Below are positions 13,590 to 58,700 of a stretch of DNA of 64,000 nt, in pieces. The notes under the pieces were generated by a model, which saw only the letters and a program-made list of their open reading frames with translations, was not told where the DNA came from and ran no database searches. The stretch spans positions 6,696,001 through 6,760,000 of the forward strand of contig OU612069.1 in the NCBI GenBank assembly GCA_914767715.1, written 5' to 3'. Origin of the DNA: Membranipora membranacea (lineage: Eukaryota > Bryozoa > Gymnolaemata > Cheilostomatida > Membraniporidae). The stretch's first letter is position 1. Each line of letters opens with the position of its first letter. The position numbers and the translations under genes were made by a program.

Positions 13590-13930
13590 TCAGTAACTCA
13601 GTAGCTCAGTCATTAAATCCTTGCACATAGATTTATGGTTGCTGGGTTCGAGCCCTGCTCGTAACAGTATTCTTTTCTCGATCAAGATATTGATTATATA
13701 TGGTGTAAAGAAAAATCGTCTTCTATGACTGACATATGCATGTATCGAGCTACAGACCTCAGATTTGGAGGACACACTCAAAGTGTGCATTTCTTTGTCC
13801 GTCATCAAAGTGGAATGATTGCACACATAAGCCAGCAGCATGGCTGCAATTTATATCATTTCTCAATTGTTATCAGTAAAGCTTTCGAAATGTTGGCAGA
13901 TTGTTTACCAAAACAAACTCCTGTCTTTTT
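13590..13930 (+). mobile_element. tRNA-headed SINE fused to the start of the transposase-like gene
   Basis: A tRNA-like head (CAGTAGCTCAGTCATTAAA as A box, GGGTTCGAGCCC at 13644-13655 as B box) is followed by the shared SINE body from about 13725. The body is cut near 13930, where sequence of the transposase-like gene begins. The reading frame of that gene stays open back through the SINE to an ATG at 13725, so the first ~68 codons of that frame are SINE-derived. Confidence 0.65.
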
Positions 13931-14885
13931 TAGAACATCATACAGAGACAAAGATAGCTTTTTACGTTACTTTGGTCTTGGAAATTGGGGAAAGCTCACC
14001 CAGGAGGAACAGGCATTACACACATTCCAAGACTGCAATGTTTGTTCGACAGAGCACAGAAAAAGGTACATTAAGCTGTGGAGAAATGCCTTGGGACTTT
14101 TCAAGACTTTTGGAGACGAGGGCGATCAACCCACTGCCCCACCTCCAAAACCGATGTCAGATCAAGAAAAACAAGAGCTCATCCGCAGGACGATTGAGAA
14201 AATAGGGGACACATCTGTTGCAGCCACCAATAAAGCAGTGCTAGCCCATGATGTGAGCTACAGGAAGCTTCAAAATATACGAAGGGGGATAACTTTGGAG
14301 AGGGAAGAATGCGCTAGGCCAAAATACATACCAAAGTTGGACAAATATGTGTTTGATGTGGAATCAGTGTGCAACACCATTGCCGACTGCACTCAGAGAG
14401 GTACTAAGATAAACTGGGCTAGATTAGCAAGAGACAACCCGGTCTTTATATCTGACACGCAGAAAATGGCCCTAAACGGCAACCAGATACTGAAAGACTA
14501 TGCAGTAACCGAAGGGCTGATCGCTGAGGAGACAGTTACGAAGAGGGCAAGAAGAAGCAAGAGAAAGCTGGAGCTGGGCGGTGTGAAGTTCACAATATCA
14601 GACTCCCTGCCAACAGCAACGCAGCTGAAACAGGAAACAGTCGACAGAATTGCCAAAGGGGAGCTGGACATAGGAACACCCTTAGTACCCATCAACTTAG
14701 ATGTCCTGAAGATAGGAAAAGACGGAAATCTCAAAAAAGAAAATTGACGACCCGTGGAAGGGCGTACAGCCTCCAGAAGATTATGGACAGGCTATTGACT
14801 ACTCAAGAATCTGCCGGCTATCTCAGAGATGCATTCCCAGATGACGCAGACTTCAATGATACTCGGAAATATCTTGAAGACAAAG
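13931..14885 (+). pseudogene. Transposase-type repetitive gene, N-terminal exon, frame broken
   Basis: After the SINE junction an open frame runs to a TGA at 14745-14747. It includes a possible zinc cluster (CNVC, then EHRKRY, about 14037-14066), a proline-rich hinge, a basic RARRSKRK patch and a GGVKF segment. Immediately after the A-rich run 14734-14744, another frame continues with TTRGRAYSLQKIMDRLL and on to the donor AAAG/GTAAAA at 14885, in phase with the next exon. So one base has been lost, or two gained, in the A run. The start is unclear because the 5' end is SINE. The full-length protein resembles, from memory, large repetitive proteins of cnidarian and sponge genomes that look transposase-derived; I could not confirm that. 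Confidence 0.6.
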
Positions 14886-17942: not shown

Positions 17943-18089
17943 TAGTCTTCAACTGTGTTGTGTCAAAAATCTGTTCAAGTGATTCATGTTTGCTTACAGC
18001 TGTTTCCTGAGACCAAAACAGTAAAACCCAGAGCTATGTTTGGGATGCCTTTTCACTCCATAACATCTCACTTTGCTGAGTGGTACCGG

Positions 18090-21000
18090 TGTAGTATTGT
18101 AAACTGTCCCCCGCGCGAAAACAACCCCGGGACACTTTACAATATTGTAAACTGTCCCGGGGACACTTTACAATAAAAACCGGCCTATTGTAAACTGTCC
18201 CCCCCTATTGTAAACTGTCCCCCCCTATTGTAAACTGTCCCCCCCCTATTGTAAACTGTCCCCCCCCCCCTATTGTAAACTGTCCCCCCCCCTATTTGTG
18301 ACTGTCCATATCAAGGGTCCAGCTGTTAATCACCATTCTAAATTGGTCAGATCATCTAACTGGAGCATACCATGATGTTCTGGCTGCCACTATGATGGCC
18401 AAAGCTGTACCATGGGGATGGTGGGGGTATCTCATTGACATTATGAATGAGTGTATAAAGCCATTTTTTCATATGGTACTTTGTAGATCTATTTTTCGCA
18501 AACACTAGTCGTTATTTGAAGCTCCTATGATTTAGAGATGTCTGGTTTGCGAAGAAAGGTGCACTAAGCTAACAGTGGATAGATGTGTAGTTGCCACATC
18601 ACAGAACACACATACTTTCATTGCAGGTTCATGAGCCGCGCGAAAACAACCACCCCATTCGTTCATCATAAAATCTAGCTCCGTCAAGCATTTGCCTGGG
18701 AGTGATGGCAGTCAGTCACAAGTGTGAGCGGGAGAAATAATTACTTTTGAGCTTTTCATATTGTGAGGCCTGGTATTGCACTGTAAAATATTGCTTATAC
18801 TGAGCGAAAACAACCACCCTCAAGCTGTCTTATAAAGATATCTGTTAAAAAGTCTCAAACATAATGAGCCGTGATTTTGCAGCCATAATTTGATTGTCAT
18901 GAGGTGACCGTCTACCAAATTTTAGATTGAAAGGTTAGAACTTAATTACACAACGGATAGTATGTCATTCTTTGCAAATTCATGAGCCGCGCGAAAACAA
19001 CCACCCCATTCATTCATCTTGAAATCTACCTCAATCAAGCATTTGCCTGTGAGTGATGAAAGTCAGTCACAAGTGAGACCTGGAGAAATAGCCACTTTTG
19101 AGTTTTTCATATTGTGCAGGCTGGTATTGGACTGTAAAATATTGCTTAAGCCGCGCGAAAACAACCACCCCCAAACTGTCTTATAAAGATTATCTGTCAA
19201 AAAGTCTCAATCATAATGAACCATGATTTGGCAGCCATAATTTGATTGTCATAAGGTGACTGTGTACTAAATTTCAGATTAGTAGGTCAGAACTTAATGA
19301 CACAACGGATGATATGTCGTTCTTTGCAAGTTAATGAGCTTCCTGAAAACAACCACCCCATTCATTCATCTTGAAATCTACCTCAATCAAGGATTTGCCT
19401 GTGAGTGATGACAGTCAGTCACAAGTGTGGCTGGGAGAAATAACCTCTTTGAGCTTTTCAAATTGTGCGGCCTGGTATTGCACTGTAAAACATTGCTTAA
19501 GCTGCGCGAAAACAACCACCCCCCAAGCTGTCTTATAAAAATTATCTGTCAAAAAGTCTCAAACGAAATGAACCATGATTTTCTAGCAATAATGTGATTG
19601 TCATGAGGTGACTGTGTCCCTAATTTTGGATTAAAAGGTTAGAAATTAATGACACAACAGATGATATGTCATTCTTTGCAAGTTCATGAGCCGCGCGAAA
19701 ACAACCACCCCATTCATTCATCATAAAATCTGCCTCAATCAAGTATTTGCCTGTGAGTGATGAAAGTCAGTCACAAGTGAGACCTGGAGAACTAACCACT
19801 TTTGAGTTTTTCATATTGTGCGGCCTGGTATTGGACTGTAAAATATTGCTTAAGCCGCGCGAAAACAACCACCATTCTTGATTGAGGTAGATTTCAAGAT
19901 GAATGAATGAGGTGGTTGTTTTCGCGCGGCTCATGAACTTGAAAAGAACAACATATCATCCGTTGTGTCATTAAGTTCTGACCTACTAATCTGAAATTTG
20001 GTACAGAGTCACCTTATGACAATCACATTATGGCTGCCAAATCATGGGTCATTATGATTGACACTTTTTGACAGATAATCTTTATAAGACAGCTTGGGGG
20101 GTGGTTGTTTTCGCGCGGCTTAAGCTATATTTTACAGTCCAATACCAGGCCGCACAATATGAAAACCTCAAAAGTGGTTATTTCTCCAGGTCTCACTTGC
20201 GACTGATTTTCATCACTCACAGGCAAATGATTGAGGTATCTTTCAAGATGAATGGGGTGGTTGTTTTCGCGCGACTCATGAACTTGCAAAGAACGACATA
20301 TCATCCGTTATGTAATTAAGTTCTGACCTACTAATCTGAAATTTGGTAGACGGTCACCTCATGACAATCACATTATGGATGCAAAATCACGGTTCACTAT
20401 GTTTGAGACTTTTTAACAGATATCTTTATAAGACAGTTTGGGGGGTGGTTGTTTTCGCGCGGCTTAAGCAATATTTTACAGCGCAATACCAGGCCTCACA
20501 TATTGAAAAGCTCAAAAGTAATTATTTCTCCCGCTCACACTTGTGACTGACTGCCATCACTCCCAGGCAAATGCTTGACGGAGGTAGATTTTATGATGAA
20601 TGAATGGGGTGGTTGTTTTCGCGCGGCTCATGAACCTGCAATGAAAGTATGTGTGTTCTGTGATGTGGCAACTACACATCTATCCACTGTTGGCTTAGTG
20701 CACGTTTCTTCGCAAACCAGACATCTCTAAATCATAGGAGCTTCAAATAACTAGTGTTTGCGAAAAATAGATCTACAAAGTACCATATGAAAAAGAGGCT
20801 TTATACACTCATTCATAATGTCAATGAGACACCACCACCATCCCCATGGTACAGCTTTGGCCATCATAGTGGCAGCCAGAACATCATGGTATGCTCCAGT
20901 TAGATGATCTGACCAATTTAGAATGGTGATAAACAGCTGGGCCCTTGGTATGGACAGTCACAAATAGGGGGGACAGTTTACAATAGGGGGGGACAGTTTA

Positions 21001-21161
21001 CAATAGGGGGGGACAGTTTACAATAGGGGGGGACAGTTTACAATAGGGGGGGACAGTTTACAATAGGCCTGTTTTTATTGTAAAGTGTCCCCGGGACAGT
21101 TTACAATATTGTAAAGTGTACCGGGGTTGTTTTCGCGCGGGGGACAGTTTACAATACTACA
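18090..21161. mobile_element. 3.07-kb giant foldback element, CCGG target duplication (copy 1)
   Basis: Termini TGTAGTATTGTAAACTGTCC and its exact inverse, flanked by CCGG at 18086-18089 and 21162-21165. Left (18090 to about 19873) and right (about 19874-21161) halves are near reverse complements, so almost the whole element can fold into one hairpin. From the ends inward: a GC-rich terminal block, a short tandem array of TATTGTAAACTGTCCCCCC units (18181-18297 and its inverse 20965-21066), a unique segment, then roughly 350-bp tandem units each with two copies of a GCGCGAAAACAACCACCCC motif. No protein of note is encoded. It interrupts an exon. Confidence 0.9.
18181..18297. repeat. Short tandem array near the left element end
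   Basis: Five to six units of TATTGTAAACTGTCCCCCC with variable C-run length. The inverse array is at 20965-21066, and equivalents in copy 2 are at 52261-52350 and 55545-55628. The terminal 20 bp of the element is itself one unit, so the array repeats the terminus. Confidence 0.85.
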
Positions 21162-21689
21162 CCGGCTGATTGCTCTGAGATCAATGGCTGCTGAGAATCA
21201 GGAAAGGTTCTTCAAGACGATAAAAGAAACGACAAAGTCGACAAACTACACTGATGACCATCTTGTGACCAACGCTCTGATTCGGATTCAGTCAAAGATT
21301 GAGGAGGAGCTAGTCGGAAAAGCTTGGAGGGTCCAAGAAACTGAAATCAGCAAAGAATCGAAGCAGCTTCCAGCCAGACACCAGACTATCATCACTAAGC
21401 AGATGATTGATGAAAACCCTACTCTCTTCGCTGCTCATAAGAAGCGGATAGCAGATTACCTTCTGGACGGGTTATGGCACGAGGAGCAGGATGGGAACTG
21501 GATTTTCTCGGATAGCGAGGCTGATGGAATCCCTGCCACAACTTCTGTGAAGCCGATGCACATGAGGTAATGTAGAAAAACATATCATCCCCCCCCCCTT
21601 ATACTCCGACGCAACTTTAACCAAAACATTCATAAGTTTAACATCCAGGGTATTATTATTTTTCTGAGTTTTCTAAGTTGTTTGGAACA

Positions 21690-45137: not shown

Positions 45138-45163
45138 TCAAAATAAATGCAAGTTTGTGTTAC
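45138..45163 (-). CDS. Possible terminal mini-exon of the ROCO-caspase gene
   Basis: After the donor at 45909 (one base left), the acceptor CCGCAG at 45169-45164 opens GT AAC ... and reaches TGA at 45140-45138, in the correct phase, giving a nine-codon tail. Such short exons can occur by chance. Confidence 0.35.
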
Positions 45164-48100
45164 CTGCGGATGTATAAATATAAATCAAGACAATAACTCA
45201 AAGTATCCAATATCTGATAGGGAAATAATCTAACCTTGTAAAATAATCTTAATCAAACTGAAGCATGATACACATGGGATTGTAGTGTAATATAGGAATG
45301 AAGCTCTACTGTCTACCCTAAGCATTATGTTGATAATAAAGTTAAGTATGAATAGAAAATGTAAGGAGCAAAAAAAACGTGTAGACATTTTCTATATTAG
45401 TCATTACACCAACTTGCTCCCTGAACTGATAGCAGATTACTATAAAAATGGTAGAAAATATGTATGGGTGCCTTTTACGGTATAATGTTAGCCCATTGTA
45501 AGAATGTGATTGAATATGATGATGGTGCGCTATTACATTCACCAAGTACCCTTGTCTTGTTGTATGAGTGCAACCACTGTGAGCGGATGGTAGTTATGTA
45601 TGTGTGACAGTCCACTTATAATACTCAGCAGACTGGACTACACGCCCCCCTCGTTTTATCACTCTGACTTCTTTCTCTACAAGTAGAAAAAAATCTGATA
45701 ACAACAGATAGAGATTATTAAATTAGCAGATCAATTCTACTGACAGCATTCAGGATTATTTTGGATATAATTATATACATTATGAAGTTATCGTCAGATG
45801 CCCTGCTCATCCATAATAATATCTTTAACTTGCCTCATTTATAGTACTAGTACATGGGTAAAAAAATACAGTATCATATAAGCATCCAAATAAGAGGAGT
45901 GAGCTTACCTAGAAGTGGTTCAATCCTTGTAACCACCTGGTTTGGCACATTCGCAAACATCTCAGGTGAGTTCTGAATTTGGACTCCAGGTAGCAGATAC
46001 AGTTTTCTCAGATTAGTGAATGTGCAGACAGTTTTAGGCATCTGAGAGACATAAGAGGCAGCAGTGGGAGCTGCAGCAGCACCTCTGTTCAGGTTCTGAT
46101 CTGTTCTCTCCACTCCATATCTTGTCACTGATTCTCTTACCTGCAATTTTGATGGTTGAAAATGGTAATGCATCATCTGTAAGAGTTTGAATGACTTCAT
46201 GATTGGTTAAATGATTTCAGAGAGTGTAAGGTTGAATTATATTTATGGAATATTAGAGGTGAGAATGACTCCGATCAAGAGATTTACTTCAATTGATGCA
46301 TCAGTAGTTTAGAGTAAGTTGGGTTAGTCAGTTGCATTTATAGGCACTTAACCGTTTGTGTCCATGAAGAAATATCTCAATATAACAAGGAACTTATGCA
46401 AGACTTACTATTTCAGCCAGAGATACAACATCATGCCTATGTCCCAGGGTGTATAAGGTCGCCACCAAAGCCCTGATGAAGGGTGATCCAACGCCAGGGT
46501 TCCTTGGTGCAGCAAAAGCTACAATAGAAATTACTCTATGATACATAACAAATCCATTGACCCATTAATACCTAAGGTGGCTGTAGTTCTGCTGTAATTT
46601 TATTATGGAAGAATTCTTGAAATAATCTTCAAATGATAATACGAGGGATAGTCCCCTCTAGTGCGATGGAATCATGACTGTACTGTACTGACTGTACTGT
46701 ACAACCCCAAACAACTGCCACTTCTAAACTTATATTGCTGTTTAAGCTGAATTTTTCTGCTGTTGAATACTCACAATCAAAGCTGGACTGCATAATGATC
46801 ATATCTGATACAGATATGTCTTGTGTATCATTGTCCACTTCAAAGTCATTAGAACTCGGCATTGTCAAAACTTGAGTGCTGCTATCAGTTTGGGGAGCTC
46901 TAACAGCTGCTGTTCCAGTAGTGAGGTCGTCTCTCAACATTTCCCGATTACCTTTTTGAAAAAACGCGGATATGATCATCAGCTGCAAGACTTAGTAGAT
47001 ATGCTATAAGCCTGTACTGTATTGTATCAATTTCTTGATTTTATAAGCTAACTGTCTTGTTGTTTATGTCCTTTCAGTTTCAACTTCAGACCTAATGTTA
47101 TAAGCTACATTCTACTTAAAAACAAAATCTGGTGCTGCTGCCTGATATTATTTCTCATTCAAATTTAACAATACTTACTGCCAGCACATGCTTGTATGAT
47201 CACAATCTTTGGTCGGCCTCTCATCACCGAGAAGTTCTTAGGAGAGAGTAGATTGTAAATATCCGTTAGTCTGATGAAGACTCTGTCAGAGCCAATAATA
47301 CAGCCCTCGTCTCCATGACTGGTCAGAACGAGTACAAACGCCCCCATATGCTTGTGTACTGATTGACCGACTTGATCTGTTAACTGTGTCTCGCAGTGTA
47401 TGGCTTCGATGATTTCCTAGTAAAAAAAAACTTACGTAAGTCCTCCATAAAAGGTTTAGTTTCTCAAATTATTGACTGAGATAGTTTACTGCATTGATGT
47501 CATAGAGCAGTTACCCTGGAGCGTGGTCTGATATTGTCAAGGAGGGATGATTCTAAAGCCTGGTCATTCGTCACAATCAATCGTACATGTAAACAATTCA
47601 CAGATTGTAAATGTTCAGCTTACCCTTGCAGTGTAGGTTTTGTGTTCACCTACAGTAACAAACCCTAGTTTGTCAAGCATACACTTGATATTCTGATAGT
47701 CATGTTCAGAACCACTCCTTGTCTGGTTGTAGTCGTTAGAGACAATCAGAGCACGTCCTCGGCATTCTGTCATCTGGTAAACAGTCTGAAAATAATCAGA
47801 AAACGAAGCCTTGATGATATTTGAACTATTTTGTTGCCTCATAAGCTTTAAGATCTGAGAATTGTACCAAGGAACTTCCGAACCACAGCTGTAATTATTC
47901 ACTTCATAGACACAGCCTTCTAAGTTTGTGTGAAGACATGAAAATATCGATCAAAATCATAACAAAGTAGCAGCTTTATAAACCTGGCTTTCAGGGATTA
48001 AACTCTGATCTGCTTGTTGTGGTTCCATATCTATCTGGGGTTGCCTTCTTTTCATGATCTCCACTACATCCTGAACTTCGGACATCTGGATCTCTGGTAT

Positions 48101-50403
48101 GCTCTGGCCAGGATCATCTGCTGTGAGAACAGGAGGAGGGTCAGGTTTCACATAGTGCTTATTAGAATTTGAATTTTCTCTGCCTGTTTTCTTTTTACCG
48201 TAGAAACCAAGTTTCGTATGATTAATTCAGTAAAAGAGAGCTGTTGACTGACCTGATCCCGCAGTTGTCTCCTCCCTTCTTATGTAGTCATCAAGAATTC
48301 TGACTCCCTCCTCACTGATCTTAAGACCTGTTTGAAACAACAGCAAAAATGGCAAGGTTAGCACCCCTATTGAAACAATCACTTGGTTAACATGCAATCC
48401 CGAAAATTAATGCTACAAATGGTAACAAATGAATTAATCGGATCTGCTGAGGCAGATAATGATATTTTTCCATGAACTTACATGGATATCTGAGAGGTAG
48501 CGGGACACGCCTCCTCTCATCGTTGGTGTCACATGGACAAGTCTCCTCTCCAGTGTAGGTGGTATGACGGGGCTCTGGCAGTTTGTATCTGACACGCCTG
48601 TTGAACCACTCAGGATTGACAAATGTTGCTGGTGATGACTGTTTGGTCAGTAGGCAATGAGAGCAGTAGAAGACATGGTCATATCGAACTCCTTTCCACA
48701 CAGAATCCAATTCAGATGTAAGCCGCTTCATTGTTTCTAGTTGGGTCTTCCAAGCATCGCTGATAAGCCTGGCCGGTGTTTGCGTGATGAGTGTCACTTG
48801 TTTTTCTTTCTCATTATGCAATAGATACCGCAAGACTCCGTTCATCTCTTGCACACTCGCTCCATTTATACCAGCTTCAGGTGTGTTGAATGGATTGACG
48901 CATATGTCTAGAAATCTTGCAGTGATTACATGATATACATATTGCGGAACGTTGAGGCCGTTCAGATACAGATCGACTCTCAGCTGAAGGTGATTTGTGC
49001 CTTCTGTTGGGTTTGGTATGTTCTTAGTGCTGAAGTAGGGAACGATGAACTTCTCACTGCCATCACTTTCTATAGGTCCACAGATCAGGTGAAATGTTTT
49101 CAGCAGCGTGATACCAACATCAACAGGTAGTTCCGATTCATTGCTGAGCAGATTGTGAAGTAATGCAGCTCTTATGATTCCTGTGGCTTTGAAATCATTG
49201 ACCATGCTGACATACTCTCTTCTGTCCACAGGTCTTTCCTTATATCTGTAGGGTCTAAATTTGGTTATGCGATATTCCCATGCTTGAGCATCTGCATGAT
49301 CGTAAAGTGTCCTTATGACATCAGCAAGAACTGAAGGGCGATGGAATAAATAGTCACTCAGCTTCTCAACGTCCTGAAACCACATTATTCTTCCTGCTTC
49401 TTTGACGTACTGCAAAGCATGCTCACTGTGCTTACTGAAACCTTGTATGAAGTCAGTAACAGAAACATAAGGCTTTTGCTCTTCAGCAGTAAGCTTATTC
49501 AGCACTTCATACCAACTACCGGGTATATCAGTGATCAGCTTAGCCCCTGCTTCCTTCAGTGCACTCTTTAGTGATTTGATATCCATCTTGCTCGATGAAG
49601 CCGAGAGCTCTTGTATTGTTGTGATCAGGGGCTGTGCTCTGTCGATGAAACATGTCATAGAGAAAAATGAGCTGTCAGGCATAGCAACACCCTCTTCTGA
49701 TTGAATTACATCTAAACGCAGCTTCTCTGTTGCTGATAAAAGCTGTTTCTTCCTCAGTTTGAGGGTCTCGTTGCTAAGCAAATCACCATGAGTCAGTACG
49801 AGCACTGGTCTTCCTAGGTTTGGTTGTGATGTATATAGGTGCGCTATCCACTGGAAGCATACATCCTGAGCTGCAGCCTCTACTCCATGCGCATGTACTA
49901 AACTGTCAAACTCTGCTATATCTACCACTAGAAGTGGTACAGATTGTACTTTGGCGTTCACTTGATAGGCAAGGTGATACACCTCATGCCCTCCCAAATC
50001 AGTGAATACCAACTTCAATTTCTCATCAATGTCAGCCTCGCATACATTGAAGACACGTGTTGCCTCATCAAGCTTGATGTCGATATCGGAACGGGTTGTC
50101 AGCACACGCTGATCCTTCTGTACGCTCCTCACAATGCTTGTCTTTCCTGCTTTAGTCTTGCCTATGACTGTTACCGGAATGAGTCTGAAAATGTTGTCTT
50201 TTTCAGCATGAAGATCCTGCAGATACTTCCTTACAGCTTCTATACCCTGTATGCAGACAGCATAGGGAGGAGATACTAGTGCTTCGCATCGGTTACATTT
50301 GAAGGCCTTTAGCGTGCTGATATTGAAGATACTTTCAGGTATAGAGGGGAGTGACCCGTTTCTTCTAATATCAAGTACTTCCAGTTTGGTGAGTTGCCCC
50401 AGG
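45138..50403 (-). CDS. ROCO-caspase fusion: LRR (partial)-Roc-COR-linker-caspase
   Basis: Eight exons join in perfect phase: 50403-48482, 48327-48253, 48183-47984, 47854-47624, 47416-47179, 46951-46775, 46518-46409 and 46140-45909; a ninth (45163-45138) would add a short tail ending HLF-stop. The product is a leucine-rich end, a Ras-of-complex GTPase, a COR domain, a disordered linker and a caspase-type domain, about 1,080 visible residues. No frame break is present, unlike the neighbouring genes. By family knowledge, Roc-COR units are GTP-dependent dimerising switches and caspases are activated by proximity, so the expected role is a GTP-controlled protease in death or immune signalling (inference). 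The 5' LRR exons are not identified; they may lie beyond 50.4 kb, where a foldback element now sits. Confidence 0.85.
45909..47854 (-). CDS. Caspase-type protease domain (p20 and p10)
   Basis: p20: CRGRALIVSNDYNQTRSGSE (Arg equivalent to caspase-3 Arg64 kept), YQNIKCMLDKLGF, LTSHGDEGCII with the catalytic His, and KIVIIQACAGS with the catalytic Cys; the family pentapeptide is usually QACRG, here QACAG. A linker with several Asp residues (SNDFEVDNDTQDISVSD) separates p20 from p10 and could hold processing sites. p10: SFAAPRNPGVGSPFIRALVA in place of the usual SWR...SWFI; the Arg of the SWR motif (caspase-3 Arg207), which holds the substrate Asp, is Ala here. Substrate preference may thus differ from Asp, or the enzyme may be weak. 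Confidence 0.83.
47984..48327 (-). CDS. Linker exons between COR and caspase domain
   Basis: Exons 48327-48253 and 48183-47984. They code a helical KISEEGVRILDDYIRREE segment and a Pro/Gln/Asp-rich linker (PDPPPVL ... QQADQSLIPESQ). Both junctions keep phase; the caspase exon starts at ILKLMRQQ after a TTCTCAG acceptor. An alternative 5'-shifted acceptor at 47920 would break the phase. Confidence 0.7.
48482..50403 (-). CDS. LRR end, Roc GTPase and COR domain exon
   Basis: One 1,922-nt exon. It opens with a leucine-rich repeat (LTKLEVLDIRRN ... IPESIFNISTLKAF) and the ROCO-typical SPPYAVCIQGIEAVRKYL junction. The Roc part shows a P-loop GKTKAGKTSIV (about 50163-50131), a switch II DLGGHEVYHLAYQ, a strand VPLLVVDIAEF and THGD at the base-recognition position (NKxD in Ras; THxD is usual in ROCO). 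COR features follow: FIQGF, GRIMWF, LFHRPSVLADVIRTLYDH, and a winged-helix-like C-terminal part. The end has CSHC and CPC clusters that could bind a metal. Donor at 48482 leaves one base. Confidence 0.88.
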
Positions 50404-52161
50404 CTGTTTAAAAGATAAAAATATATTTACTTTCAATCATAATGAGCGTTGCCGACATGGGGATGAACTTTTAGTCATGACTAGACAAGTGCAAGGTACC
50501 GTGAGTGGTATGGTGGGTTGGCCAAGGTTGCACAAGAAGATACAAATGTGTTGAAATTTGGGGAAAATGGCGCAGTCATTGCAGCCTCGCCCTCAAGGCA
50601 CACACTATTTCGCCGCCACGGTGTGGTGAGTGACTAACCCTTGTGATTTTAACCAACATTTTTAAAGCCAACTAATGACTTACTACTAAATTGTGAGTTT
50701 GTTACTTGCAACAGGGCCAAATGATATCCAGCATCACAACGCCCGCTATCCCAGCAAATTAAAAAAAAAGTTTACTTTTATTTATTTTTCAATGTAATGC
50801 AATGTAATGTAGAATAATAAGTCATTCTTTCGTTTGTTATTTATCACTTCTGTTGTGACAGCTCATCCCCACCCTATTAATTTGATCAAAATTGTAGCGC
50901 TGATTGTTTTTCATCCTTTTGCTAATATGCTAATCAATTTCAACCTAAGACCACCTCCAGTATGCAGTAAATTTATTACTTTGTGAGGCCTTACGTTGCA
51001 TTCTAGGCTTTTGGGGTCGGGGTTACTCCCTGAACCCTGAATCGGGGGTGTGGATGGGGGGGGGGGGGGTTACAGCGCTTCTCCCAAAGCTGAGATTAAT
51101 TGATATTACTGTGCTGCACAGGATAGTCTACGATGGTGGCAGGTTCACATTCAAAAGCTAGAAGTCACTCCTGTTTAGGGAGCCTTGATCTGAGCAACCC
51201 TGATTGTCACAATAAACAACATGGAAAATGAATTATGGTGATCTATTGACAATATTAGTAAAATTAGTAATTCAAAGATCCTTGAACTGAGGAAATTTTA
51301 AATTTGATAGGCCACATAATCATAATAACAGCGTTATTTCGCTCTTTTTTTCAGTGACAAAGTTCTCTTATTCACTTGTAATCGGCTACATTTAGTTATT
51401 TTTACAGGATAATACACACTTGGCATCGTAACTTTCAACATAATCTTACTTGATAGAGTTGAAAGTCTCAGATTCTCACTATCAAAGAACTTGTCTTATT
51501 GACTTACTGTACAAATTATTTTTATTTTAAATTGGTACACAGTTGATTTATTATTACATGAGGTGATGAGGACTAACTAATTTGCTAAATATAGTCTCAT
51601 CAAACTGCATTTTTGTTCTGGTCGATTTTCTTGCTAATTGCCAAAAAGAGATATAATTAATCAAATTAATATTATGCCTTATTGATAACTTCCCTCATAC
51701 TAGGAAAGGTTGCTCCAACACAATAAAATGATAATAATAATAATGAAAATTTCGCTAGTTATAATAATGATATATGTTTGTATTATGCACATGTATTATT
51801 GGATTAATAAGTATTGCCCCTCATGTGAATGGAAGGAGACAACTCAATAGAGCGATCAAGATTGATACAATATCTGATAGTTATTTTGTATCAAGTTTGC
51901 CCTGTAAACTTAACAAATTTAGAAAAGGTTACAGTCCAGTAGACCTAGGATAGGTAAGATGTACTCCATCCCATAGAAAGCTAAGTAAAGTAGATATTTC
52001 ATGTCAGCTAGGAAAAGCTCCTTTGGGGTATGTACTGAAATGCCGATAAACTGAAAACCCAACATGAGAAGCATAGGGCACCATTGAAAAGTGCTGCTTT
52101 GCACCCTCAAGGATTATTACTTTCCCTAGATTTTTTATAGATCAGTTTTTGAGAATTGGCA
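50404..52161. other. Intron or upstream region with a diverged repeat
   Basis: No further LRR exon was recognised on the minus strand. 50660-51500 is a diverged copy of 63120-63960 in the same orientation. A G run lies at about 51057-51070. Confidence 0.45.
50660..51500 (+). repeat. Dispersed ~0.8-kb repeat, copy A
   Basis: Shares ordered blocks with 63120-63960: AAATTGTGAGTT...ACTTGCAACAGGGCCAA, TTGTGACAGCTCAT, CACAGGATAGT, TGAGCAACCCTGATT, CGGCTACATTT and ACAGGATAATACAC. No coding frame. Class unknown. Confidence 0.75.
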
Positions 52162-52165
52162 CCGG

Positions 52166-55100
52166 TGTAGTATTGTAAACTGTCCCCCGCGCGAAAACAA
52201 CCCCGGGACACTTTACAATATTGTAAACTGTCCCGGGGACACTTTACAATAAAAACAGGCCTATTGTAAACTGTCCCCCCCTATTGTAAACTGTCCCCCC
52301 CTATTGTAAACCGTCCCCCCCTATTGTAAACTGTCCCCCCTATTTGTGACTGTCCATATCGAGAGCCCAGCTGTTTATCACCATTCTGAATGGGTCAGAT
52401 CATCTAAGTTGAGCATACCATGATGTTCTGGCTGCCACTATGATGGCCAAAGTTGTACCATGGGGATGGTGGAGGTATCTCATTGAATGAGTGTATAAAG
52501 CCTCTTTTTCATATGTTACTTTGGGGATCTATTTTTCGCAAACACTAGTTATTTGAAGCTCCTATGATTTAGAGATGTCTGGTTTGCGAAGAAAGGTGCA
52601 CTAAGCCAACAGTGGATAGATGTGTAGTTGCCACATCACAGAACACACATACTTTTATTGCAGGTTCATGAGCCGCGCGAAACAACCACCCCATTCATTC
52701 ATCATAAAATCTACCTCCGTCAAGCATTTGCCTAGGAGTGATGGCAGTCAGTCACAAGTGTGAGCGGGAGAAATAATTACTTTTGAGCTTTTCATATTGT
52801 GAGGAAGGGTATTGCACTGTAAAATATTGCTTAAGCCGCGCGAAAACAACCACCCCCCAAGCTGTCTTATAAAGATATCTGTTAAAAAGTCTCAAACATA
52901 ATGAACCGTGATTTTGCATCCATAATGCAATTATCATAAGGTGACTGTGTACCAAATTTCAGATTAGTAGGTCAGAACTTAATGACACAACGGATGATAT
53001 GTCGTTCTTTGCAAGTTCATGAGCCGCGCGAAAATAACCACCCCATTCAGTCATCTTGAAGTCTACCTCAATCAAGCATTTGCCTGCGAGTGATGAAAGT
53101 CAGTCACATGTGAGACCTGGAGAAATAACGACTTTTGAGTTTTTCATATTGTGCCGCCTGGTATTGGACTGTAAAATATTGCTTAAGCCGCGCGAAAACA
53201 ACCACCCCCCAAAGTGTCTTATAAAGATTATCTGTCAAAAAGTCTCAATCATAATGAACCATGATTTGGCAGCCATAATTCGATTGTCATAAGGTGACTG
53301 TGTACCAAATTTCAGATTAGTAGGTCAGAAGTTAATGACACAACGGATGATATGTCGTTCTTTGCAAGTTCATGAGCCGCGCGAAAACAACCACCCCATT
53401 CATTCATCTTGAAATCTACCTCAATCAAGAATTTGCCTGTGAGTGATGACAGTCAGTCACAAGTGAGAGTGGGAAAAATAACCGCTTTCGAGCTTTTCAT
53501 ATTGTGCGGCCTGGTATTGCCCTGTAAAACATTTCTTTAGCCGCGCAAAAACAACCACCCCCCAAAGTGTCTTATAAAGATAATCCGTCAAAAAGTTTCA
53601 ATTATAATGGACCATGATTTGGCAGCCATAATGTGATTGTCATAAGGTGACTGTGTACCAAATTTCAGATTAGTAGGTTAGAAATTAATGACACAACGGA
53701 TGATATGTCGTTCTTTGCAAGTTCATGAGCCGCGCGAAATCAACCACCCCATTCAGTCATCTTGAAATCTACCTCAATCAAGAATTTGCCTGTGATTTAT
53801 GAAAGTCAGTCACATGTGAGACCTGGAGAAATAACGACTTGTGTCATTAAGTTCTGACCTACTAATCTGAAATTTGGTACACAGTCACCTTATGACAATC
53901 ACATTATGGCTGCCAAATCATGGTCAATTATGATTGAGACTTTTTGACAGATTATCTTTATAAGACACTTTGGGGGGTGGTTGTTTTTTGCGCGGCTTAA
54001 GCAAAGTTTTACAGGGCAATATCAGGCTGACAATATGAAAAGCTCGAAAGCGGTTATTTCTCCCAGTCTCACTTGTGACTGACTGTCATCACTCACAGGC
54101 AAATTCTTGATTGAGGTAGATTTTAAGATGAATGAATGGGGTGGTTGTTTTCGCGCGGCTCATGAACTTGCAAAGAACGACATATCATCCATTGTGTCAT
54201 TAACTTCTGACCTACTAATCTGAAATTTGGTACACAGTCACCTTATGACAATCGAATTATTGCTGCCAAATCATGGTTCATTATGATTGAGACTTTTTGA
54301 CAGATAATCTTTATAAGACACTTTGGGGGGTGGTTGTTTTCGCGCGGCTTAAGCAATATATTACAGTCCAATACCAGGCGGCACAATATGAAAAACTCAA
54401 AAGTCGTTATTTCTCCAGGTCTCACATGTGACTGACTTTCATCACTTACAGGCAAATGCTTGATTGAGGTAGATTTCAACATGACTGAATGGGGTGGTTG
54501 TTTTCGCGCGGCTCATGAACTTGCAAAGAGCGACATATCATCCGTTGTGTCATTAATTTCTAACCTTTTAATCCAAAATTAGGTACACAGTCACTTCATG
54601 ACAATCACATTATTACTAGAAAATCATGGTTAATTTCGTTTGAGACTTTTTGACAGATAATCTTTATAAGACAGCTTGGAGGGTGGTTGTTTTCGCGCGG
54701 CTTAAGCAATATTTTACAGTCCAATACCAGGCGGTACAATATGAAAAACTCAAAAGTCGTTATTTCTCCAGGTCTCACATGTGACTGACTTTCATCACTC
54801 ACAGGCAAATGCTTGATTGAGGTAGACTTCAAGATGACTGAATGGGGTGGTTATTTTCGCGCGGCTCATGAACTTGCAAAGAACGACATATCATCCGTTG
54901 TGTCATTAAGTTCTGACCTACTAATCTGAAATTTGGTACACAGTCACCTTAAGATAATTGCATTATGGATGCAAAATCACGGTTCATTATGTTTGAGACT
55001 TTTTAACAGATATCTTTATAAGACAGCTTGGGGGGTGGTTGTTTTCGCGCGGCTTAAGCAATATTTTACAGTGCAATACCCATCCTCACAATATGAAAAG

Positions 55101-55723
55101 CTCAAAAGTAATTATTTCTCCCGCTCACACTTGTGACTGACTGCCATCACTCCTAGGCAAATGCTTGACGGAGGTAGATTTTATGATGAATGAATGGGGT
55201 GGTTGTTTTCGCGCGGCTCATGAACCTGCAATGAAAGTATGTGTGTTCTGTGATGTGGCAACTACACATCTATCCACTGTTGGCTTAGTGCACCTTTCTT
55301 CGCAAACCAGACATCTCTAAATCATAGGAGCTTCAAATAACTAGTGTTTGCGAAAAATAGATCCCCAAAGTACCATATGAAAAAGAGGCTTTATACACTC
55401 ATTCAATGAGATACCTCCACCATCCCCATGGTACAACTTTGGCCATCATAGTGGCAGCCAGAACATCATGGTATGCTCCACTTAGATGATCTGACCCATT
55501 CAGAATGGTGATAAACAGCTGGGCTCTCGATATGGACAGTCACAAATAGGGGGGACAGTTTACAATAGGGGGGGACGGTTTACAATAGGGGGGGACAGTT
55601 TACAATAGGGGGGGACAGTTTACAATAGGCCTGTTTTTATTGTACAGTGTCCCCGGGACAGTTTACAATATTGTAAAGTGTCCCGGGGTTGTTTTCGCGC
55701 GGGGGACAGTTTACAATACTACA
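52166..55723. mobile_element. 3.56-kb giant foldback element, CCGG target duplication (copy 2)
   Basis: Same termini as copy 1 (TGTAGTATTGTAAACTGTCC and inverse), bounded by CCGG at 52162-52165 and 55724-55727. The hairpin centre lies near 53835. Each arm holds the terminal C-run array, a segment with TCTGGTTTGCGAAG, and alternating units carrying GCGCGAAAACAACC. The repeated short open frames in the arms are repeats read in frame, not genes. It lies upstream of the visible ROCO exon and may sit in an intron of that gene. Confidence 0.9.
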
Positions 55724-55727
55724 CCGG

Positions 55728-58700
55728 TATTGTGATATTTCAGACAGTTTAAATGACACATAATATTATATCAAACCTAATTTCAATTCGGTAAATTGCA
55801 ATTCAAATCTGTATGCAGCATTAATTTGAAGAGTTTTAAGATATAACATCCTTTGCTGGCGTCTTACTGAACATTGTTCCAGTTATGCATCTTCCAAAAT
55901 ACTATTTCCAAGGTGGTATAGAAACATTGCGGCAGCAGAAATCATATCCCATTACACTCATGCTATTTGTTGAGAGGACAATCCAATGCTCTAATATTAT
56001 TGGAATGAAAAGTATCACCATTATGATGAGAAAAAGCACTGAACGTTGTGACAGTTTTATGAAAAAACATTACCACAATGCATCTCATTTTGAACATTAT
56101 CAGTGGCTATGAGGTGGTTGCCACAGCATTATAAAACAAACTTCATGAGATGATCATAAAATAATGCTGTAGTGATGGAAGAACTGTGATGCTATAACAT
56201 TGTTAAAATTGAATACTTTTTGATAGCATGATCATAACATCATGAAAGTGCTAATTATAAGCTGTATTCTCACATTTAACAGTGATGTATCATCATGTCA
56301 TAAATAATTTTTGACTAATACTAAGAAGCAAAGATTCTGCTATAACTGAATCTGAACATTGTGATTACCATTCTGTATCCTATTAGACAATAACCCAATC
56401 CTATCATTTACACACCATGTAATACTTGAAAAATTTGTATGCGACACGATGTTACAATGTTCACCGTTTGCTTGGTTTTTGACCTTCATTTTTTAACAAG
56501 AAGTCAAACAGTTTTTAGGTTATGGAATATAGGGATCACACAAATTCTCAGGGATCAATATTTTTATTAGCATTTATAAACTTGGATTGTCAGCATTGCG
56601 ATAGGTAAACAATAAAAAAATCTTTTTCTTTTATATCTACTGGTAGGTACATATAACAATCGCCTTAAACAAACTGCTCACATGGATTTGTAAACAAAAG
56701 GCAATATCTCCTTGTCTAGCATACTCAGCAAGTCATCATGGAAAAGGTAATAAAACTGCCAACACAGGTCTCCAAAATTTAAATTCACACTTCCGCTTTT
56801 GAATTTTACTAATCGCAGTCATGTAGATATGTTGGTGGTTGGTTGTTTGACTGATCTAAATACAACAGCTTTATTTTCAGTTTTAACGCTTTGTATATTT
56901 GGTATTTATTACAAGCCATTGCCATCATCTTAAGGGCAAATCCTCCAACTGTACTATTTAAATATTTACAAACATATCCAACTGTCAACAAACAGTCCAT
57001 TGAAATAATGAAAGTGAAAGATTTGAAAGAGTTCCAAAAAAGTCGCCACCTCCATAAATGGGGTGCAATCATAGACTTGATTATAAACCTAGACATGACA
57101 CTATATGGATAGTGAGGCACTAAGCGACTTAATTGTGGGCAACAAACGTCATTGGAAGGTGTAGAAGCAATGATGCTATCATTGATTTTCCGTCCACAAT
57201 CCAGGTTTTTTAATTATAACTAGATCAATTTCGATCGGATTTTGAGTTTGAAAATTACAATAGATTTAGCAGCTTATCTCATTTACTGCAAAACAGATTT
57301 GGAAGTCAGTGACCTGTTACCCCACAAACTTGCTATACATATAGAAAGTCTTTTGTTCTGCTACACAAAATCCACAAGAAATTTAGAAGAATAGAAACAA
57401 AAGACAGTGGATATTCTAGTTTGTATCAACTGTTGTGTCATTTGATTGAAAGCCCAGCAATTTTGAATTCGGCACCCTTTACTAGAATTGAATGTAAATG
57501 CTAATTTCATGTATTTAATTTGGCCCTCAAATCGATTCCACACCAAAATATGGAAACATAGTGATTTTGAAAAATAATTTCGATGGGCAAAAAATGTTGC
57601 TAAACTGAACTAATACTAAGCGAAAGTAAGGGCTTAAATTTCATGCAGCCGCAGTGAATTTTGGTCAATTGTAACTTTAATAACATCCAAAAATTAACAA
57701 TTAAATTTGATTTTGATTCTGCAAGGTTATTGGTAGCTTTGGTCTTAGCCTTGTATGATATTTTCAAATATGCCTATCGTATACCATGCTCACTGAGCTA
57801 GAACTTTATCGACAGAGCGGCAGCATTTCACTCAGGATGGCAGCATTAGAGCTGCAACAATTTAGTATCCAACAGTTTCCTCTATTCTTATTTCTCCATG
57901 ATACTTTTGAATTTCTTGCCACAAGCTGGTATTGCTGGTATGTCGGGTAGATTCAGTAGTGAATTCGCCATAAGTGCTAGGGGACTTGACCCTACCAATT
58001 TTCAGCGTGTCAATTTTGAAAAACCTCTTGTTTTTAATTACCAGATGTCCAGAAGGCCTCATTGTGAGATTGGTTGGAATTATGAATGGATTACGCTGGT
58101 TTACTTGGTGCAATAGCCAATTACAATAATTTTCCCCTTTGACTGCCCTTAAAAGAGGATTGCATCATGATATTCCTGTGACGTAGAATAGGTAATGTAT
58201 TTCCTATGTTTTTGCCTACAATCTGAGCAATTGACTATAGCCAACGTCACTAGGCACTGATTTTCTTCATCCTTGATTTGGGTACACCAATCTACACATA
58301 TTTAAAATTAAGACCAATAAGACGATGGTCTTTTATAAAAGACTCCATAATTGCAAACAATATGATATGGTCTACTACTCTATAGCTCATCTGCAGGAGT
58401 GAACTCTCATTGCAGGAGCCATCGAATATTCTCAGGGTTGAGAATAGCAGGATAGTCTCATTTATTGAACCCACCATACACAGACCATTTATAAGAGATT
58501 TTATAAAGGACCATTACACAGGACACTTTTTTGTGTAAATACCTGAGATGTTAATCAGCCTTCACTCTATTGTTTCTTTGGGATTAGGCATCACATCCAT
58601 TGTAAATTTAATATAAATGAAATTATGCTAAGAAGACAGGAAAAACCTATACTTGTTTAGGTGAACAAACTCAGAGTAGTTCTCAAAAGATAATGTCTCA

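What the first reader, a model, noticed from the sequence alone, without database searches (positions are those of the whole stretch)
45138..50403. ROCO GTPase fused to a caspase domain in one phase-consistent gene
Seen: eight exons join with no phase error and code LRR, a P-loop GKTKAGKTS, DLGGHE and COR motifs, then a p20/p10 caspase with SHG and QACAG. Known: Roc-COR proteins (LRRK2 type) usually carry kinases or death domains; caspases usually use CARD or DED prodomains. I know of no described LRR-Roc-COR-caspase protein. Inference: a GTP- and ligand-controlled protease that needs no adaptor, a candidate new death or defence switch.
Basis: partly seen in the sequence, partly recalled or inferred. 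Interest (0 to 1): 0.92.

Follow-up and report, generated by a model that had tools for sequence, protein, structure and literature searches.

The report
Animal LRR-ROCO-caspase receptor gene family
One gene in what looks like an animal genome joins a sensor-like LRR part, a GTP-driven switch (Roc-COR) and a death protease (caspase) in a single protein, and the same genome carries dozens to probably hundreds of relatives, so it looks like an immune-receptor repertoire wired directly to cell death.

Summary
On the minus strand, one Roc-COR exon (50403-48482) and seven further exons down to 45909 join in phase into Roc-COR plus a complete p20/p10 caspase; a ninth, 26-nt exon is weak. It reads as one gene, not two. 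In 7 of 7 paralogs first fetched, caspase exons follow Roc-COR in the same order and strand. Exon borders chosen without regard to phase match the window's phase at 92 of 95 sites in nine paralogs. Against paralog L035, dN/dS is 0.23 for Roc-COR and 0.13 for the caspase exons. The LRR part is thin inside the window; two LRR exons lie beyond its end. Bacterial LRR-Roc-COR-caspase proteins are already described (PMC8195603), so the layout is not new to life; nine open-access searches showed no animal family of this kind. Most likely function: adaptor-free intracellular receptors that trigger cell death by Roc-COR-controlled caspase proximity (inferred).

The parts
48482..50403 (-). Exon 1: last LRR repeats, Roc GTPase, COR, Cys-rich end (YCSHC...C); 1922 nt
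   Evidence: acceptor cag and donor gtaagt kept in 3 near-identical copies
49899..50174 (-). Roc GTPase as matched by Pfam (P-loop GKTKAGKTS at 50162-50136, DLGG); the G4-like LTHGD follows downstream of this match
   Evidence: residues 77-168; invariant columns
49296..49523 (-). COR-A as matched by Pfam (below cut-off here)
   Evidence: residues 294-369; profile-profile match to prokaryotic Roc-COR 99.6%
48253..48327 (-). Exon 2, linker
   Evidence: equivalent exon modelled in 5 of 7 paralogs
47984..48183 (-). Exon 3, linker between COR and caspase
   Evidence: splice sites kept in 3 copies; not modelled in the 7 paralogs
47624..47785 (-). Exon 4, start of caspase p20 (RGRALIVSN, TRSGSEHD)
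47179..47416 (-). Exon 5, p20 catalytic core: SHG (His 47317-47315) and QACAG (Cys 47188-47186)
46775..46951 (-). Exon 6, p20-p10 linker with candidate self-cleavage site FEVD and start of p10
46409..46518 (-). Exon 7, p10 (PRNPGVGSPFIRAL)
45909..46140 (-). Exon 8, end of p10 (VSQMPKTVCTFTNLRKLYL)
   Evidence: 88% aa identity to L035
45138..45163 (-). Tentative last exon, 8 aa and stop
   Evidence: 11 gap columns against 2 of 3 copies, so doubtful
52161..55728 (.). 3.57-kb foldback element inside the intron upstream of exon 1 (not part of the protein)
   Evidence: outer arms 522 nt 99% complementary, inner arms 1161 nt 94%

Best explanation
It is one member of a large animal family of cytosolic receptors with the layout LRR - Roc GTPase - COR - caspase. 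Shown by sequence: the fused gene model, its exon structure, conserved nucleotide-binding and catalytic motifs, purifying selection on both halves, the multigene family, two-LRR exons, two caspase types and one dead caspase. Inferred: the LRRs sense a microbial or self-danger ligand; ligand binding shifts the GTP-dependent monomer/dimer state of Roc-COR; this brings two caspase domains together, which self-process at an Asp in the p20-p10 linker (FEVD here) and cleave substrates, leading to cell death or inflammation without a separate adaptor or a CARD/DED platform.
For: Gene model and domains. The caspase part matches CED-3 best (2.8e-13), then caspase-1, -2, -3 and -8, and keeps the His/Cys pair plus the Arg, Gln, Arg, Ser that line the Asp pocket by alignment (pocket roles recalled). 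Roc-COR matches prokaryotic Roco structures (4wnr 7e-18 by profile) and prokaryotic Roc-COR by hhalign at 99.6%, E 1.6e-23. Linkage: 7 of 7 first paralogs. 62 of 69 Roc-COR exons have a caspase exon within 8 kb downstream on the same strand (18 type A, 44 type B), against 1 of 69 on the wrong side or strand (type B by the best 57 of 150 rows). One of the other 7 was read and has a divergent type A. Four of 4 upstream stretches chosen from the caspase list carry Roc-COR. Phase agreement 92 of 95 borders. dN/dS 0.23 and 0.13. Catalytic pair kept in 27 of 28 type-A exons read besides the window.
Against: No transcript, protein or activity data. The N-terminus is unseen, so a death-fold prodomain is not excluded. 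COR-A is below Pfam's cut-off in the window gene, and COR-B was matched in only 1 of 8 members. The Trp that lines S2/S4 in caspases (WRNP, recalled role) is Pro here, so substrate preference may differ. Among three C5 near-copies the whole-gene dN/dS is 0.94, 0.48 and 0.51 on few changes, so very recent copies show little constraint. Three of 95 borders disagree in phase (L016 E8 start, L017 E1 start, L026 E8 end), and 6 of 54 exon searches found no match. Repertoire size alone does not prove an immune role. 122 of the 150 type-A exons were not checked for a Roc-COR partner.
Confidence: 0.62

Rival explanations
1. Two neighbouring genes: an LRR-Roc-COR gene ending near 48.39 kb (intron retention gives a stop) and a separate caspase gene.
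For: Exon 1 is open to 48390 and would end there if unspliced.
Against: Introns of 154, 69 and 198 nt leave little room for a promoter. Linker exon 2 was modelled in 5 of 7 paralogs. Same order and strand in 7 of 7 paralogs and in 62 of 69 by coordinates. The donor after COR has the same phase in 9 of 9 paralogs.
Confidence: 0.04
2. A real fusion, but the family serves self/non-self recognition between individuals (allorecognition) or developmental cell death rather than microbial defence.
For: High copy number and LRR exons fit any system that needs diversity; PMC8195603 (passages) lists allo-incompatibility in colonial animals among uses of cell death.
Against: No positive evidence either way here; nothing tested distinguishes ligand classes.
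Confidence: 0.2
3. The Roc-COR part is a scaffold only, and the caspase is a regulatory or decoy module with little proteolysis in most members.
For: L016 has lost both catalytic residues and also the [VIL]D linker site.
Against: 27 of 28 type-A exons read keep His and Cys (these were mostly picked from the better-scoring rows); purifying selection on the caspase exons.
Confidence: 0.1
4. Copy number is inflated by assembly artefacts such as haplotype duplicates or re-expanded repeats.
For: 13 C5 copies are 94-100% identical in Roc-COR, and exons and introns are nearly identical in the 3 read.
Against: Members read or scored on C1, C3, C4, C9, C10 and C11 are 27-59% identical to the window's Roc-COR, so the family is old and large even if the C5 set is discounted; 13 copies exceed two haplotypes.
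Confidence: 0.04

Closest known systems
Bacterial LRR-AP-GTPase(Roc)-COR proteins with C-terminal caspase (Kaur et al. 2021, PMC8195603; passages and section 15 read)
   Same: LRR - Roc - COR - effector order; caspase among exchangeable effectors; several paralogs per genome; proposed counter-invader role
   Different: Here an intron-containing genome, a caspase that matches CED-3 and animal caspases, and a far larger family. No caspase motif was seen in the 65 of 79 fetched archaeal/bacterial Roco loci whose frame reached past Roc+400 aa, so the bacterial case rests on the paper
Sea-anemone LRR-Roc-(COR)-TIR gene NG1 and kinase/Roc-COR/death/TIR gene NG3 (PMC5094078, passages)
   Same: Animal Roc-COR with a death/immunity effector
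   Different: Effector is TIR or death/kinase, not caspase, in the passages seen
Amphioxus LRR-caspase and TNFR-caspase hybrids (PMC2575513, passages)
   Same: Receptor part joined directly to a caspase domain, proposed as a pathway shortcut
   Different: That paper's main text had no hit for Roc, COR or GTPase as whole words: no GTPase switch reported there
Brown-algal LRR-ROCO candidate immune receptors (PMC11378527, passages)
   Same: LRR-ROC-COR multigene family with LRR units on phase-2 exons
   Different: LRR-ROC-COR without a caspase (0 hits for the word); 72-bp one-repeat exons there, 141-bp two-repeat exons here
Animal NLR repertoires, e.g. Dysidea avara (PMC12909245, passages)
   Same: LRR + NTPase + death-related domain, large expansion; a figure legend lists CASc and COR among the domains drawn
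   Different: NLRs use NACHT; here the NTPase is Roc-COR
LRRK, DAPK, MFHAS1 and Trichoplax ROCO genes (PMC4104024, passages)
   Same: Roc-COR core
   Different: Other partners (kinase recalled; CARD, death, TIR and others in Trichoplax); no caspase domain named in the passages seen

Membership tests
Roco (Roc-COR) proteins | Roc GTPase motifs: P-loop, DxGG, THxD (motif names recalled) | tested here: met
   Pfam Roc over cut-off; invariant AGK[ST]S, DxGG and LTHxD in 8 of 8
Roco (Roc-COR) proteins | COR domain directly after Roc | tested here: met
   COR-A matched in 8 of 8 members at E <= 0.01, below the cut-off in the window gene; hhalign 99.6% to prokaryotic Roc-COR over profile columns 47-467 of 646, i.e. 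Roc and the first part of COR; COR-B in only 1 of 8
Caspases (C14A) | p20 and p10 with His/Cys pair and QACxG | tested here: met
   His and Cys codons read
Caspases (C14A) | Asp-directed proteolysis after dimerisation | not testable with these tools
   sequence only; pocket residues conserved by alignment
Initiator caspases | CARD or DED prodomain | tested here: inconclusive
   none in the two pieces scanned (exon 1, and exon 3 to exon 8), but the N-terminus is outside the sequence read
LRRK-type Roco kinases | kinase domain after COR | tested here: not met
   no kinase family at E <= 1
NLR receptors | NACHT or NB-ARC NTPase | tested here: not met
   Roc and other GTPase families, no NACHT or NB-ARC at E <= 1
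Bacterial AP-GTPase conflict systems | LRR-Roc-COR with exchangeable C-terminal effector | tested here: met
   types A and B caspase on related Roc-CORs; LRR exons upstream
Bacterial AP-GTPase conflict systems | prokaryotic gene with prokaryotic caspase type | tested here: not met
   spliced gene, PDB matches are animal caspases; bacterial caspases were not compared directly

The most novel reading that the evidence does not exclude
This animal runs a second intracellular receptor system, parallel to NLRs, in which a Roc-COR GTPase replaces NACHT and the death protease is built into every receptor. It comprises about 200 or more genes, with modular LRR exons, two exchangeable caspase effectors, and tandem or dead caspases acting as built-in brakes.
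Probability: 0.5. Interest if true: 0.9.

Novelty: new variant of a known kind. Interest (0 to 1): 0.8.

Why it matters
Textbook animal death receptors and inflammasomes need adaptors to recruit caspases. A family that joins sensor, GTP switch and caspase in one chain would be a compact, testable case of receptor-to-protease control. It would show what GTP cycling of Roc-COR (the domain mutated in LRRK2 Parkinson disease) does to an attached effector, using proteolysis as readout. It would also show that an animal, like bacteria, built a large LRR-ROCO effector repertoire, which bears on how animal cell-death immunity arose.

Tried and rejected
Two-gene reading: rejected on intron sizes and recurrence. 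The first phase comparison allowed only borders in the window's phase, so it is no test of phase, and it stopped with an error before L026 and L035; the open test is. LRR exons between 50.4 and 64 kb on the minus strand: none clear by motif scan, none at E < 0.01 by a small home-made LRR HMM. Death-fold or kinase domain: none. Relatives in viral contigs: 9 pattern matches, none a relative. In genome contigs with alignment A1: 40 matches, none a relative. With an archaeal Roc fragment: 79 loci; the 65 whose frame runs past Roc+400 aa show no caspase-like motif by regular expression, 14 could not be judged, so the bacterial precedent is the paper's, not mine. Single-sequence structure of the Roc-COR exon: mean pLDDT 33, not used. 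The protein database search could not be made (switched off). Genome searches with PF08477, PF00656, PF05729, a Roc segment and the L013 Roc-COR did not complete. The first tree lost 7 of 15 intended rows by a faulty pattern and was redone, where L055 was still missed. No RNA data are available.

Full report
What is there. The minus strand of 50403-45909 holds eight exons that join without a phase error, with a doubtful ninth at 45163-45138; the joined frame is 1046 aa. The first exon, 1922 nt, carries the end of an LRR region, a Roc GTPase and COR. Exons 2-3 are a linker. Exons 4-8 are a complete caspase. Pfam gives Roc 28.6 bits (cut-off 27), COR-A 24.2 bits (cut-off 35.3, so below it) and Peptidase_C14 101.4 bits over nearly the whole profile. 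The caspase part aligns best with CED-3 (E 2.8e-13); 164 PDB sequences match at E <= 0.001, and the 60 shown are CED-3 and other animal caspases, among them ancestral reconstructions and engineered forms. His, Cys and the Gln of QACAG align, as do the Arg of TRSG, the Arg of PRNP and the Ser of GSPF; their role in Asp recognition is recalled. The Trp of the usual WRNP is Pro here. Among GTPases in the PDB the Roc part matches only prokaryotic Roco structures, alone (4wnr 2.3e-6) and as a profile of eight paralogs (7e-18). A profile of twelve archaeal/bacterial Roc-CORs aligns with it at 99.6% (E 1.6e-23) over Roc and the first part of COR, columns 47-467 of 646.

The window is C5:6696001-6760000 of a 339-Mb, 18-contig assembly whose organism no tool named. 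A six-frame search with the Roc-COR exon scored 69 matches out of 322 candidates, each over nearly the full 640 aa, 68 of 69 without a stop. Thirteen of them, the window included, lie on C5 between 4.1 and 7.6 Mb at 94-100% identity; 47 lie on C3. A search with caspase exon 5 scored 150 of 198 candidates, on C1-C5 and C7-C11. A search with an exon of the other caspase type scored 150 of 258. By the tool's own statement such counts are lower bounds.

One gene or two. I fetched seven paralogous Roc-COR loci found by COR-A: 7 of 7 have caspase exons behind Roc-COR, same strand, same order, with 27-42% Roc-COR identity. A first exon model of these loci imposed the window's phases and so tests nothing about phase; it modelled exon 2 in 5 of 7 and exon 3 in none. 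In an open test, borders were picked by splice-site look and nearness to the expected border only. They agree with the window's phase at 92 of 95 borders in nine paralogs (L011-L017, L026, L035); L016 E8 start, L017 E1 start and L026 E8 end differ, and 6 of 54 exon searches found no match. L013-L015 are near-copies of each other, so these sites are not all independent. By coordinates, 18 of 69 Roc-COR exons have a type-A exon within 8 kb downstream on the same strand and 44 more have a type-B exon (all but two within 2.4 kb); the wrong side or strand gave 1 of 69 (only the best 57 of the 150 type-B rows were used). The seven without a hit all lie in C3:23.07-23.62 Mb; one of them was read (L026) and has a divergent type-A caspase. 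In the other direction I read upstream of four type-A exons on C1 (two), C9 and C11, and 4 of 4 carry Roc-COR. That makes 74 loci with both parts: 62 by coordinates, plus L026, L011-L017 and L052-L055 by reading. Of the 150 type-A exons, 28 are tied to a Roc-COR exon (18 by coordinates, L011-L016, L052-L055); the other 122 were not examined.

Selection. Against the C3 paralog L035 (59% Roc-COR identity), dN/dS is 0.23 over 639 Roc-COR codons and 0.13 over 301 caspase codons, with dS 1.3 and 1.0. Three C5 near-copies keep the splice sites and show no stops. Their introns are about as similar to the window as their exons, and whole-gene dN/dS is 0.94, 0.48 and 0.51 on few changes. They are very recent copies that say little about constraint.

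LRR part. Inside the window only the last repeats are present, in exon 1. Two exons of 141 bp, each with two LRRs, lie at C5:6762515-6762655 and 6767773-6767913; they begin and end in phase 2 and would join AG|C to exon 1. Similar two-LRR exons occur upstream of L011 (L022), L012 (L018), L015 (L024) and L017 (L023); their phase was not checked. None was found in the 9.9 kb upstream of L013, L014 and L016 (L019-L021). One C11 member (L025) has an open frame of 2462 aa, of which 2275 aa lie in the fetched locus, most of it 23-aa LRRs that lead straight into Roc-COR. The N-terminus of the window gene was not found.

Two effectors and a dead one. Type A is the window's caspase. Type B scores 57 bits for Peptidase_C14 and is nearest to caspase-8 in the PDB. 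In the Roc-COR tree the one pure type-B member included (L025) falls beside the window and L035, inside the type-A members, with support 93/98 that the program does not star, and with a long-branch warning for L011; L055 was not included. L016 and L013 have almost the same Roc-COR (end branches of 0.04), yet L016 carries an extra type-B-like unit (also a row) and then a type-A caspase that has lost both His and Cys. So effectors appear to have been exchanged or added behind closely related switches. Of 28 type-A exons read besides the window, 27 keep His and Cys; most were picked from the better-scoring rows. A [VIL]D site in the p20-p10 linker is present in 6 of 6 intact members looked at and absent in L016; with so short a motif this is only suggestive.

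How it most likely works (inferred). Roco proteins are proposed to cycle between monomer and dimer states with their nucleotide (PMC6337361, passages), and initiator caspases are activated by proximity (recalled). An LRR-sensed ligand that shifts Roc-COR would bring two caspase domains together, and self-cleavage in the linker would fix the active protease. No adaptor would be needed. A tandem active/dead pair as in L016 could act as a brake or as a built-in heterodimer, in the manner of caspase-8 with cFLIP (recalled analogy).

Known or new. PMC8195603 (passages and section 15) describes bacterial LRR-AP-GTPase-COR proteins with at least 24 C-terminal domains, caspase among them. Sea anemones have LRR-Roc-COR-TIR (PMC5094078, passages). 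Amphioxus has LRR-caspase hybrids (PMC2575513, passages). [quoted passage not shown] Brown algae have LRR-ROCO repertoires with phase-2 LRR exons (PMC11378527, passages). The Dysidea avara NLR paper lists CASc and COR in a figure legend (PMC12909245, passages); figures are not held, so overlap cannot be excluded. Nine searches of open-access papers (listings plus passages of nine papers) showed no animal LRR-Roc-COR-caspase family. Subscription papers and preprint servers were not searched. I rate it a new variant of a known kind.

Noticed in passing
window 52161-55728 and 18085-21165: A 3.57-kb foldback element (outer inverted arms 522 nt, 99% complementary; 353-nt internal tandem units) sits in the intron upstream of exon 1; a relative lies at 18085-21165.
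   Followed up: partly
L016 (G000:C10:22185100-22195000): Roc-COR almost identical to its neighbour L013, but followed by an extra type-B-like caspase unit and then a type-A caspase lacking both catalytic residues.
   Followed up: partly
G000:C5:4.1-7.6 Mb: 13 near-identical type-A genes are interspersed with 6 type-B genes (47% Roc-COR identity to the window), as if a block holding both had been amplified.
   Followed up: no
L025 (G000:C11:3044000-3053990): One long open frame, mostly very similar 23-aa LRRs, running into Roc-COR; possibly a recently expanded repeat array.
   Followed up: no
window 13665-14744 (+): 360-aa open frame without a Pfam match at E <= 0.1, possibly a mobile-element gene.
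   Followed up: partly
window 48665-48531 (-), end of exon 1: Conserved Cys/His cluster (YCSHC ... C) after COR, invariant in the eight aligned members (C580, H582, C583, C624), perhaps a small zinc-binding unit.
   Followed up: no
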